DNA from: Pseudomonadota bacterium
GTDB taxonomy: Bacteria; Pseudomonadota; Gammaproteobacteria; Burkholderiales; Burkholderiaceae_C
Direction: 5' to 3'
Length of the DNA stretch: 64,000 nucleotides
Assembly (NCBI GenBank): GCA_021845505.1
Contig: JAJZVU010000002.1
Span: 62,001-126,000 of the forward strand
This document shows positions 1,883-48,749 of this stretch, piece by piece. The notes beneath the pieces are model-generated. The model was not told the origin of the DNA. It saw only the letters and a list, made by a program, of their open reading frames with translations, and did no database searches. Position 1 is the stretch's first letter. Each line of letters begins with the position of its first letter. The translations under genes were made by a program, and so were the position numbers.

Positions 1883-4021
<2,139 letters not shown>

Positions 4022-15450: not shown

Positions 15451-15463
15451 AGGCACGGGTTGG

Positions 15464-15585
15464 GTGAGCGCCGTTGCACATGCGCCGCGCGGAAGGCGGC
15501 GCGCAGACACGAACTGCACCCCGAGCCTGGCGATCCGCCGGCGCCGAGCGGCGCCCGCGGATGCGTTGCAACGCTCCTCGGGGAT
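15464..15585 (-). promoter_or_regulatory. SAH riboswitch upstream of ahcY-metF
   Basis: On the minus strand the segment contains CCGAGGAGCGTTGCAAC, later GCCAGGCTCGG, and near its 3' end AACGGCGCTCA. These match the conserved core of the SAH riboswitch (P1 arms CCGAG/CTCGG and the GAGCG to CGCTC pseudoknot) as known from Ralstonia and relatives. The internal P2 arm is extended, ATCCGC pairing with GCGGAT around a GGCGCC hairpin. SAH binding is known to turn ahcY expression on. About 70 bases separate it from the ahcY start. Confidence 0.9.
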
Positions 15586-47024: not shown

Positions 47025-47311
47025 TGGTGCCGAGTGTCCGACTCGAACGGACGACCTACCGCTTACCGTACCACTTCGGCTTTCGCCGCCTCTGGGTTCG
47101 TGGTCTGGACTATCCCTTGGCCATGGCGATCGACGCGTTAGGCCCCCCCCGTCTAGTCTCTACACCTTCCCACCGCGTGGGCTTGGCTCGGGATTGGCAT
47201 GGCCGTCGCGGCTTTAGCGTTCCCCGAGTTTGAGGGGTTCTGCACCCGCCGTTTCCGGCAGGGCACTCGTTCACATCAAGGCGGTTGCTCTACCAGCTGA
47301 GCTAACCCGGC
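47025..47311 (-). tRNA. tRNA-Thr(UGU), interrupted by a group I intron
   Basis: The 5' exon is 47278-47311 (G1 to U34) and the 3' exon is 47025-47066 (G35 to the encoded CCA). Joined, they give a full cloverleaf: acceptor GCCGGGU/ACUCGGC, D-arm GCUC/GAGC, anticodon stem ACCGC/GCGGU with loop CUUGUAA, and T-arm GUCCG-UUCGAGU-CGGAC. Anticodon UGU reads threonine ACA, and perhaps ACG by wobble. The exons resemble standard betaproteobacterial tRNA-Thr(UGU). A 211-nt insert splits the anticodon after U34. Confidence 0.93.
47067..47277 (-). ncRNA. Group I self-splicing intron in tRNA-Thr anticodon loop
   Basis: The 211-nt insert has the group I core in order on the minus strand: Q-like AAUCCCGAGCCAAGC (47181-47195), R-like GGUGUAGAGACUAGACGG (about 47149-47166), and S-like AAGGGAUAGUCC (47107-47118). 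R and S pair as P7 through ACUA/UAGU. P2 and P9 are capped by GAAA loops. The 5' exon ends in U34, which can pair with the G of an internal guide GAG, and the intron ends in G, as group I splicing requires. It resembles the compact Azoarcus tRNA-Ile and cyanobacterial tRNA-Leu introns. There is no endonuclease gene. Confidence 0.93.
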
Positions 47312-47369
47312 ATCGTTTCAGCAAGCCGGCGGATTATAGGGACCGCAGCCGGCCCGGGCGCCGCGGCGC

Positions 47370-47861
47370 CTACTTGACCCGCTTGAGGTGGCTTCCGGCC
47401 GGCGGGCGCGGCGGCGGCTCGTCGCCGCCGTCCCCGGCGGGCGTCTCGCCGGGCTGCGGCACCGCGTGCAGTCGCGGCGGGGCCGCCGGCGGCTGCGCCG
47501 CGTCGCCCGCGCCGCCCTCGGCGTCGGTGTCGATCTGCGGCGGCGGGAAGGCCATGCCCTGGCCGTTCTCCCGCGCGTAGATCGCGGTCACGTGGCTGAC
47601 CGGCACGACGATCTCCCGCGCCACGCCGCCGAAGCGCGCCTTGAACTGGATGTCGTCGTTGCCCAGGTTGAGCCCGCTGGTCGCGCCGAAGCTGATGTTC
47701 AGCACGATCTCGCCGTTGCGCACATGTTCGCGCGGCACGCGCACGCTGGAGTCGACCCGCACCGCCAGGTACGGCGTGTAGCCGTTGTCGCAGCACCACT
47801 CGTAGAGGGCGCGCAGCAGGTAGGGCTTGGTCGAGGTCGGTTGCGGGGCGGAATCGCTCAT
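47370..47861 (-). CDS. sspB: ClpXP specificity-enhancing factor SspB
   Basis: Adaptor that binds ssrA-tagged proteins and delivers them to ClpXP. The 163 residues have the SspB fold (TKPYLLRALYEWCCDNGYTPY, NGEIVLNISFGATSGLNLGN) over about 1-110. A long Pro/Ala/Gly-rich tail follows and ends HLKRVK, which fits the ClpX-binding XB tail. It lies eight bases after sspA, the usual pair. Confidence 0.94.
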   Translation of the reverse strand: MSDSAPQPTSTKPYLLRALYEWCCDNGYTPYLAVRVDSSVRVPREHVRNGEIVLNISFGATSGLNLGNDDIQFKARFGGVAREIVVPVSHVTAIYARENGQGMAFPPPQIDTDAEGGAGDAAQPPAAPPRLHAVPQPGETPAGDGGDEPPPRPPAGSHLKRVK

Positions 47862-47869
47862 CGCGCGCC

Positions 47870-48481
47870 TTACTTGCGCATCACCTTTTCCGAAGGCGTC
47901 AGCGCTTCGATGTAGGCCGGCCGCTGGAAGATGCGTTCGGCGTACTTGGCCAGCGGCGCCGCCGATTTCGGAAGGTCGATTCCGTAATGGTCCAGGCGCC
48001 ACAGCAGCGGAGCGATCGACACGTCGAGCATCGAGAAGTCGTCGCCCAGCATGTAGCGGTTCTTGGTGAATACCGGCGCCAGCTGGGTCAGGCGGTCGCG
48101 GATCGCCGCGCGCGCCTTTTCCATCGCCTTTTCGTTGGCCTTGGTGGTGCGCGATTCCAGCACGCCGACGTGGACGAACAGTTCCTTCTCGAAATTGAAC
48201 AGGAACAGGCGCACGCGCGCCCGCGCCACCGGATCGCCGGGCATCAGCTGGGGGTGGGGGAAGCGCTCGTCGATGTACTCGTTGATGATATTCGACTCGT
48301 ACAGGATCAGATCCCTCTCGACCAGGATCGGGACCTGGCCGTAGGGGTTCATCACATTCACGTCCTCCGGCTTGTTGAAGAGATCCACGTCGCGGATCTC
48401 GAAGTCCATGCCCTTTTCGAACAGCACGAAGCGGCAGCGCTGGGAAAACGGGCAGGTCGTGCCGGAATAAAGGACCATCAT
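47870..48481 (-). CDS. sspA: Stringent starvation protein A
   Basis: Glutathione-S-transferase-fold protein that binds RNA polymerase under starvation. The 203 residues begin MMVLYSGTTCPFSQRCRFVL (thioredoxin-like domain), with NPYGQVPILVERDLILYES and a helical C-terminal domain. ATG at 48481 has AGGAG nine bases upstream, favouring it over an ATG eight codons earlier. The cytochrome bc1 genes that often precede sspA in betaproteobacteria are absent here; a divergent mscL takes that place. Confidence 0.95.
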   Translation of the reverse strand: MMVLYSGTTCPFSQRCRFVLFEKGMDFEIRDVDLFNKPEDVNVMNPYGQVPILVERDLILYESNIINEYIDERFPHPQLMPGDPVARARVRLFLFNFEKELFVHVGVLESRTTKANEKAMEKARAAIRDRLTQLAPVFTKNRYMLGDDFSMLDVSIAPLLWRLDHYGIDLPKSAAPLAKYAERIFQRPAYIEALTPSEKVMRK

Positions 48482-48749
48482 GGGATGCGACTCCTGAAAA
48501 AGCAAAGGGAGTGAGTTGGCTCACCCCCGCGGACGCCGTTCGCTTGCTCGCCGCGGCCGCGCAGGCCACAGGATCGGCAACTTGCGAATGATACCTCGTC
48601 CTGGCAAGGGGCGGCCCGGGCGGCGGCCCGGCGCGGGAACCCGTCGCCCGCGCGTCCCGCACAAGCTGAGGCCCTGCCTCCGACTCATGGAGGCTTAACC
48701 ATGCAACAATCGGCAAACAACAAATCTTCCAACGACGGAGAGCAACTCG

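What the first reader, a model, noticed from the sequence alone, without database searches (positions are those of the whole stretch)
47025..47311. Group I intron inside the anticodon of tRNA-Thr(UGU)
The tRNA exons join into a perfect tRNA-Thr(UGU), and the 211-nt insert between U34 and G35 has the group I Q, R and S core elements, GAAA-capped P2 and P9, a U before the 5' splice site and a terminal G. Bacterial tRNA group I introns that I know of are in tRNA-Leu(UAA), tRNA-Ile(CAU), tRNA-Arg(CCU) and tRNA-fMet. A tRNA-Thr(UGU) host may be undescribed. The insertion point equals that of the cyanobacterial tRNA-Leu intron (after U34), so spread by reverse splicing into a similar anticodon loop (CUU target) is plausible. 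At 211 nt it rivals the small, fast Azoarcus ribozyme.
Basis: partly seen in the sequence, partly recalled or inferred. Interest (0 to 1): 0.87.

Follow-up and report, generated by a model that had tools for sequence, protein, structure and literature searches.

The report
Self-splicing intron splitting threonine tRNA anticodon
A bacterium's only known gene for one threonine transfer RNA has its three-letter decoding site cut open by a small RNA that very probably removes itself, and the same arrangement, for which I found no earlier report, recurs in other proteobacteria and some phages while a standard gene finder misses it.

Summary
On the minus strand, 47311-47025 is tRNA-Thr(UGU), split between U34 and G35 by a 211-nt group I intron (47277-47067). 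Rfam's group I model matches the core (28.6 bits, E 2.2e-5), below its gathering score, and default ARAGORN reports no tRNA, so annotation would miss both. In 23 tRNA-Thr(UGU) introns, 98.4% of cells in the drawn P1-P9 helices pair and 26 of 48 pairs show double changes (2-8 when slid). No second UGU gene was found in the fragmented genome. I found no report of this host in the papers searched, but it is not unique: a pattern scan found 19 proteobacterial genomes with the same tRNA split at the same place, and four viral contigs. It belongs to a larger radiation: 115 assigned introns in Leu(UAA), Leu(CAA), Ile(CAU) at two sites, Arg(CCU), Arg(UCU), Ser(UGA) and Thr(UGU), clustering by host site. 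In the window's genus the locus (sspA-sspB-tRNA-Thr) is shared with intron-less relatives; intron-bearing alleles also carry a different acceptor stem, so the whole intron-plus-tRNA gene was probably acquired horizontally, not freshly inserted by reverse splicing. Splicing itself is inferred. A new host lineage of a known ribozyme class.

The parts
47025..47311 (-). tRNA-Thr(UGU) gene with intron, CCA encoded
   Evidence: ARAGORN intron mode
47278..47311 (-). 5' exon, tRNA positions 1-34, ending C32 U33 U34
47067..47277 (-). 211-nt group I intron
   Evidence: RF00028 28.6 bits; own covariance model, built with this sequence among 12, 146.2 bits; covariation
47025..47066 (-). 3' exon, from G35 to CCA
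47266..47280 (-). P1: exon CUU (47280-47278) with guide GAG (47268-47266), U.G at the 5' splice site; extension pair 47277-47269
   Evidence: U.G in 23 of 23, extension pair G-C in 22 and A-U in 1
47241..47265 (-). P2 hairpin with GAAA loop
   Evidence: 10 pairs, 97.8% of cells paired, 7 pairs with double changes
47232..47237 (-). P3 5' strand
   Evidence: pairs with 47145-47148 and 47152-47153; 4 of 6 pairs with double changes; one pair (47233-47152) is missing in 4 of 23
47145..47153 (-). P3 3' strand with CGG bulge
47188..47227 (-). P4 (47227-47223 with 47192-47188) and P5
47169..47181 (-). P6
   Evidence: 4 of 4 pairs with double changes, 94.6% of cells paired
47154..47158 (-). P7 5' strand, part of the guanosine site
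   Evidence: pairs with 47108-47112; 3 of 5 pairs with double changes across hosts, 1 of 5 among Thr introns
47108..47112 (-). P7 3' strand
47119..47144 (-). P8
   Evidence: 3 of 4 outer pairs with double changes
47070..47104 (-). P9 with inner GAAA hairpin
47067..47067 (-). terminal G of the intron
47333..47338 (-). TATAAT, -10-like, upstream of the tRNA; a TATAAT stands at about the same distance in L002, L003 and L192
   Evidence: sequence; the consensus is recalled, no promoter test
47370..47861 (-). sspB-like gene next to the tRNA (named from memory)
   Evidence: end of the ORF 49091-47370, start chosen by me; synteny by tblastn
47870..48505 (-). sspA-like gene (named from memory)
   Evidence: ORF; used for divergence

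Best explanation
This is a working tRNA-Thr(UGU) gene interrupted by a small group I ribozyme of the kind found in bacterial tRNA genes. The pre-tRNA is transcribed whole. The intron folds into P1-P9, P1 pairs the last three 5' exon bases (CUU) with the guide GAG, a guanosine bound in P7 attacks after U34, and the freed exon then attacks after the terminal G, joining U34 to G35 and restoring the UGU anticodon. Pairing and gene intactness are supported here; the chemistry is inferred from the known class. In this genus the intron probably did not land afresh: the whole intron-plus-tRNA allele probably replaced the resident intron-less gene at the sspA-sspB-tRNA-Thr locus.
For: RF00028 match. 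Core pairs covary across 12 introns of five tRNA kinds: 97.1% of 380 cells paired, 18 of 33 pairs with double changes, against 1-9 when slid. Among 23 tRNA-Thr(UGU) introns: 98.4% of 1104 cells, 26 of 48 pairs, against 2-8 when slid. Exons form a clean tRNA and the only UGU gene found. ARAGORN calls tRNA-Thr(tgt) with an intron in 19 of 19 loci of the corrected genome scan. sspB beside the tRNA in intron-bearing and intron-less relatives. Allele replacement: exons of window, L002, L003 and a Thiomonas MAG (L192) are identical, while the 11 full-length same-genus intron-less genes compared differ from them at 4 or 7 of 76 positions, always including two acceptor pairs; G013 differs from the window at 0.38 of four-fold sites of sspA, within the 0.26-0.48 of 13 other loci (12 seen intron-less, L025 cut by its contig end), yet its intron differs at only 12 of 211; the exact GCCGGG exon pattern without intron is in 1 of 349 family genomes.
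Against: No RNA data. RF00028 is below its gathering score and one search lists no match. The fold energy of the intron alone is unremarkable. The assembly is in 84 contigs and tRNAs such as Asn, Lys and Trp were not found, so a missed second UGU gene is not excluded. Both structures were drawn with the sequences in view, which favours them over slid versions. Replacement rests on four linked exon positions and one gene for divergence; ribozyme constraint, or co-adaptation of exon and intron, would also link them. sspB was not found beside most intron-bearing genes of other genera.
Confidence: 0.85

Rival explanations
1. A decayed intron in a dead tRNA copy; Thr ACA codons are read by another gene.
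For: The assembly is in 84 contigs and lacks several tRNAs, so another copy could be missing. ACA is rare: 20 of 16,594 codons in 48 ORFs picked by GC bias.
Against: Exons intact, core helices kept in 23 sequences with compensatory change, one match in a 99.48% complete genome, exons identical in three other intron-bearing genomes.
Confidence: 0.05
2. Fresh insertion by reverse splicing of a tRNA-Leu(UAA) intron into the CUU of tRNA-Thr in this lineage.
For: Same C32 U33 U34 target and same position; Leu(UAA) introns occur in two same-genus genomes.
Against: The nearest introns are tRNA-Thr introns, one in another genus; the same-genus Leu introns lie far off in the tree; acceptor-stem exon positions differ along with the intron.
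Confidence: 0.06
3. Vertical inheritance from an intron-bearing ancestor with repeated precise loss.
For: sspB beside the tRNA in intron-bearing and intron-less members of the genus; exact presence and absence.
Against: Precise loss would leave the acceptor stem unchanged, but the same-genus intron-less genes compared carry CU and AG where intron-bearing ones carry GG and CU; intron divergence is low for the sspA divergence, although structural constraint could also slow the intron.
Confidence: 0.12
4. The intron splices only with help from host proteins rather than by itself.
For: Some group I introns need protein cofactors (PMC3984707, passages seen).
Against: Small tRNA introns such as that of Azoarcus self-splice (recalled; only titles in reference lists seen).
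Confidence: 0.15

Closest known systems
Azoarcus pre-tRNA-Ile(CAU) group I intron (IC3)
   Same: Similar size and an identical GAAGGTGTAGAGACTAGACGG core stretch and ATAGTCCAG, in an alignment with an Azoarcus sequence recalled from memory
   Different: Host tRNA-Ile(CAU), inserted after the anticodon (recalled); the P1 and P9 regions differ in that alignment
[quoted passage not shown]
   Same: Insertion after U34 behind CUU in the 54 introns of this host assigned here; the cyanobacterial position is recalled
   Different: Different clusters in the tree: 9 host changes in all against a mean of 68.9 for shuffled labels
Putative group I introns in tRNA-Arg(UCU) and tRNA-Leu(UAA) of Beggiatoa and Thiomargarita (PMC4853749, passages seen)
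   Same: Proteobacterial tRNA genes missed by annotation because of introns
   Different: Other tRNAs; intron type not determined there
tRNA-Ile2 introns of Acidovorax and Burkholderia (tRNAscan-SE 2.0, PMC8450103, passages seen)
   Same: Introns that hide tRNA genes from a gene finder
   Different: Different tRNA; no tRNA-Thr intron in the passages seen
[quoted passage not shown]
   Same: Claimed further tRNA hosts
   Different: 22-49 nt, too short for a group I core in my judgement

Membership tests
Group I catalytic introns | Match to a group I covariance model | tested here: met
   RF00028 28.6 bits, E 2.2e-5 over 551 bases, though below the gathering score of 50 and not listed by the whole-genome family search
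Group I catalytic introns | P4-P6 and P3-P8 domains with the P7 pairing that crosses P3 | tested here: met
   P3 and P7 covary across hosts
Group I catalytic introns | U.G pair at the 5' splice site in P1 | tested here: met
   23 of 23
Group I catalytic introns | Terminal G of the intron | tested here: met
   in the relatives it was part of the search pattern, so it is no independent evidence there
Group I catalytic introns | Guanosine-initiated self-splicing | not testable with these tools
   No RNA experiment
Subgroup IC3 (tRNA introns) | Subgroup-specific model or peripheral elements | tested here: inconclusive
   Only resemblance to a recalled Azoarcus sequence; no subgroup model was run
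Homing (endonuclease-bearing) introns | Encoded homing endonuclease | tested here: not met
   At 211 nt too short to encode one; three mechanical ORFs of 98-135 aa overlap it on the plus strand and are not taken as genes
Archaeal/eukaryotic protein-spliced tRNA introns | Insert at the canonical 37/38 position with bulge-helix-bulge | tested here: not met
   Insert at 34/35 with a group I core; bulge-helix-bulge itself was not searched for

The most novel reading that the evidence does not exclude
Intron-split tRNA genes, tRNA-Thr(UGU) among them, move between bacteria as complete cassettes (exons plus self-splicing intron), replacing resident intron-less genes, with phage tRNA arrays and plasmids among the carriers; the introns persist where the tRNA serves rare codons, so slow or imperfect splicing costs little.
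Probability: 0.35. Interest if true: 0.75.

Novelty: new variant of a known kind. Interest (0 to 1): 0.58.

Why it matters
It adds a tRNA isoacceptor to the hosts of bacterial group I introns, in a lineage that spans alpha- and betaproteobacteria, and shows a blind spot: such genomes look as if they lack a tRNA that they need. Linked exon changes and closely similar introns in diverged genomes make the question of how tRNA introns without endonucleases spread (reverse splicing, or transfer of whole tRNA genes) directly testable. Phage tRNA arrays with group I introns give a possible vehicle; a 2014 review said that all phage introns observed so far lay in protein-coding genes (PMC3984707, passages seen).

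Tried and rejected
Chance resemblance: rejected on covariation and on conservation in other genomes. ARAGORN's host names were not trusted blindly: several Arg(CCU) and Ile(CAU) introns were called Arg(ACG), His, Ser, Gln or Leu, so hosts were re-read from exon ends. Of 127 loci (L067, L068) repeat others, 4 had no usable call (L123, L138, L168, L174) and 7 fitted no listed host pattern (L117, L149, L164, L178, L183, L185, L186); with the window added this leaves 115 introns. My list of host patterns was written.

Fold energy was not useful (z -1.29). The first genome contigs and viral scans found nothing because my spacer was one base too long; the window itself did not match. The corrected pattern was checked on window and loci before the last scans. 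The pattern fixes letters of the core, the terminal G and the tRNA-Thr 3' exon, so 19 genomes and 4 viral contigs are lower bounds, and these letters are no evidence in the hits. Searches used stricter filters that lose weak matches; eleven of the matches printed cover only model positions 10-86.

Tree limits: one search is a quick tree; I left out L150-L153 and L187, thinned Leu(UAA) from 54 to 26, dropped L190 and L195 as repeats of L003 and L002, and used 5 of 6 Asn contigs; L069/L203 are an identical pair and L202/L211 nearly or wholly so, all kept in. Alignment A6 (23 rows) left out L190, L195, L203 and L211 as repeats. Against my reading, the Thr introns need 3 changes, not 1: three viral ones (L207, L208, L210) fall outside, the other Thr rows come off an unresolved fork, and the deep branches there are not starred.

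Exon-allele limits: searches tested two exact patterns in 349 family genomes; 1 matched the first, 16 the second, and the rest neither, so their alleles were not seen, nor those of intron-less genomes outside the family. Five of the 19 intron loci do not carry the GG exon (L189, L191, L193, L200, L202). sspB was found beside the tRNA in 4 of those 19 (L189, L190, L195, L204) and not in the other 15, nor in L069, some of them cut by contig ends.

Rare-codon idea: codons of host tRNAs are rarer than those of other tRNAs (Mann-Whitney p 0.0004), but it was tested after the hosts were known, with codon use of this window only, and with some tRNAs assumed; Leu(CAA) and Arg(CCU) codons rank 30 and 23 of 61. 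The four viral Thr contigs do not prove a phage origin of the bacterial introns; L211 has no other tRNA in its stretch and may be bacterial flank of a prophage.

Full report
What is there. The finding lies on the minus strand. Read from 47311 down to 47025, the two ends form tRNA-Thr(UGU) with a normal cloverleaf and an encoded CCA; the insert is 211 nt. Default ARAGORN finds no tRNA in the window, and the whole-window Rfam search at gathering thresholds lists only an SAH riboswitch at 15585-15459. With a permissive threshold RF00028 matches 47237-47145 at 28.6 bits, E 2.2e-5; the whole-genome search with RF00028 lists nothing in this genome. Automatic annotation would therefore miss both tRNA and intron.

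Where the splice sites are. The intron and the 3' exon both start with G, so the window alone allows a break after U34 or after G35. After U34, the exon CUU pairs with GAG of the intron with the U.G pair at the cut, and the intron ends in G. The homologue in Uliginosibacterium (L191) starts its intron with A, which leaves only U34|G35.

Structure. I drew P3, P4, P5, P6, P7 and P8 on 12 introns from tRNA-Thr, -Ser, -Leu(UAA), -Leu(CAA) and -Ile(CAU): 97.1% of 380 cells pair, and 18 of 33 pairs change on both sides in some sequence, against 1-9 when partners are slid by 1-3 columns. P7, the guanosine site, reads CUA/UAG in the window, GCA/UGC in some Leu introns and GUG/CAC in others. On 23 tRNA-Thr(UGU) introns with P1-P9 drawn, 98.4% of 1104 cells pair and 26 of 48 pairs change on both sides, against 2-8 when slid. 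In both of 500 shuffles reached these two measures; for the number of further pair types it was 9 of 500. The drawings were made with the sequences in view, so the slid control flatters them, but drawing alone does not produce that many double changes.

Is it the only gene? The genome (3.70 Mb, 84 contigs, 99.48% complete) has 36 intron-less tRNAs by RF00005: Thr(CGU) and Thr(GGU), no Thr(UGU). The DNA search gives one match and the intron model one. tRNA-Asn, -Lys and -Trp were not found either, so the tRNA set is incomplete. In the sister genome G024 a 3' part of a Thr-like tRNA without a recognisable 5' half was seen (L065).

Who else has it. In the genus, 6 of 28 genomes have an intron of this family: three in tRNA-Thr(UGU), two in Leu(UAA), one in Ser(UGA). 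In one search, 18 of the 28 have the two halves of tRNA-Thr(UGU) side by side, 3 have the intron, and 7 could not be told. In the family, 86 of 399 genomes match at E 1e-5 or better; in the class, 32 of 369 at 1e-8. Hosts of the 115 assigned introns, window included: Leu(UAA) 54, Ile(CAU) after U36 20, Ile(CAU) after U33 12, Leu(CAA) 12, Arg(CCU) 10, Thr(UGU) 4, Ser(UGA) 2, Arg(UCU) 1. A pattern made for Thr introns found 19 genomes, all 19 called tRNA-Thr(tgt) by ARAGORN with introns of 204-237 nt: Massilia, Thiobacillus, Thiomonas, Uliginosibacterium, Acetobacter (two), Acidiphilium, Paraburkholderia (two), Burkholderia sp. WAC0059, Hydrogenophaga, Zoogloea, Magnetospirillum, Pseudochelatococcus, Pelomonas, Variovorax and three unnamed proteobacterial MAGs (classes from memory). 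Two of those MAG contigs have the same lengths as the contigs of G013 and G024, and the Pelomonas intron is identical to that of G161, so these are probably the same genomes.

How it came here. Introns cluster by host tRNA and site: 9 label changes against a mean of 68.9 for shuffled labels. The window's intron sits with those of two same-genus genomes and a Thiomonas MAG (support 100/98), not with Leu introns; but the Thr label needs 3 changes, and deep branches are weak. An sspB-like gene lies beside tRNA-Thr in the window, G024 and G013 and in the same-genus intron-less loci tested, and in a few other genera with (L189, L204) and without intron; it was not found beside the other intron-bearing genes. 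The intron-bearing genes of window, G024, G013 and Thiomonas have identical exons. The 11 full-length same-genus intron-less genes compared have CU at positions 5-6 and AG at 67-68 of the gene, where the former have GG and CU. Precise loss of an intron would not change the acceptor stem. The exact GG-type exon pattern without intron was found in 1 of 349 family genomes and the CU type in 16 of 349; the rest matched neither. Fourteen of the 19 loci begin GCCGGGU. G013 differs from the window at 0.38 of four-fold sites in sspA, as much as other relatives (0.26-0.48 in 13 loci, one of them cut before the intron site), but at only 12 of 211 intron positions. I read this as replacement of the resident gene by a horizontally acquired intron-bearing allele. 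Constraint on the ribozyme, or co-adaptation of exon and intron, could explain part of it.

Phages and plasmids. Of 10 viral contigs, four hold a Thr(UGU) intron and six an intron that I read as lying in tRNA-Asn(GUU) after U35 (ARAGORN says Thr(GGT)). Nine of the ten stretches hold six or more other tRNAs. Of 10 proteins scanned from six of these stretches, several match HNH, homing or other endonuclease families, one a tail fibre and one an endolysin; one has no match. Gordonia phage Daredevil carries an unannotated tRNA-Lys(UUU) with a 238-nt insert that matches the window's intron, about 570 bases from its integrase gene. In the plasmid collection 1,285 records match the window's stretch, 1,281 of them at 60-80% identity; I read two, and both show what I read as tRNA-Leu(UAA) with a group I intron (ARAGORN misnames it) near aac(3)-IId.

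Literature. No title or abstract start in the listings that I saw names a tRNA-Thr group I intron in bacteria, and the passages that I saw in nine papers name none. Several listings were cut, and of the 26 papers holding 'group I intron' and 'tRNAThr' I looked into two. Only open papers are held; Paquin 1997 and Ikawa 2000 were not. Known hosts named in the passages: Leu(UAA), fMet, Ile2, Arg(UCU); Arg(CCU) is recalled.

Verdict. Observation confirmed, ribozyme class very likely, splicing inferred, host lineage apparently undescribed, recent reverse splicing in this genome not supported.

Noticed in passing
L209, L212, L213, L214, L215, L216 (IMG/VR contigs): 198-199-nt group I-like introns in phage tRNA arrays, read by me as tRNA-Asn(GUU) split after U35; ARAGORN names them Thr(GGT).
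   Followed up: partly
L207, L208, L210 (IMG/VR contigs): tRNA-Thr(UGU) with group I introns inside phage-like tRNA arrays, with endonuclease-like genes among the proteins scanned.
   Followed up: partly
L219 (NC_048021.1, Gordonia phage Daredevil), 1920-2231: Unannotated tRNA-Lys(UUU) with a 238-nt group I-like intron after U34, about 570 bases from the integrase gene.
   Followed up: partly
L217 (pCTX-M3) 2958-3256; L218 1111-1410: tRNA-Leu(UAA), by my reading, with a group I intron near aac(3)-IId; 1,281 plasmid records match the window's stretch at 60-80% identity, two were read.
   Followed up: partly
L063, L076, L086, L096, L097, L103, L104, L106, L109, L110, L112, L159: tRNA-Leu(CAA) introns after C34: the 5' splice site follows C instead of the usual U; one cluster beside Leu(UAA) introns.
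   Followed up: partly
L005, L015, L131, L135, L139, L141-L144, L146, L148, L180: tRNA-Ile(CAU) introns inserted after U33, before the anticodon, a different site from the one after U36.
   Followed up: partly
L014 (own genus), L163: tRNA-Ser(UGA) split after U34 by a related group I intron.
   Followed up: partly
L178, L186: Introns that ARAGORN calls Thr(AGT); the loop would fit tRNA-Lys(UUU) split after U35. Not assigned.
   Followed up: no
L220 (Pelagibacter phage HTVC120P), 1501-1657: Match to the phage Asn-tRNA intron query between two ORFs both annotated capsid protein, perhaps an intron in the capsid gene.
   Followed up: no
window 15459-15585, minus strand: SAH riboswitch, 44.2 bits.
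   Followed up: no
L065 (G024), about 465-515: 3' part of a tRNA-Thr-like gene without a recognisable 5' half, perhaps an integration remnant.
   Followed up: no
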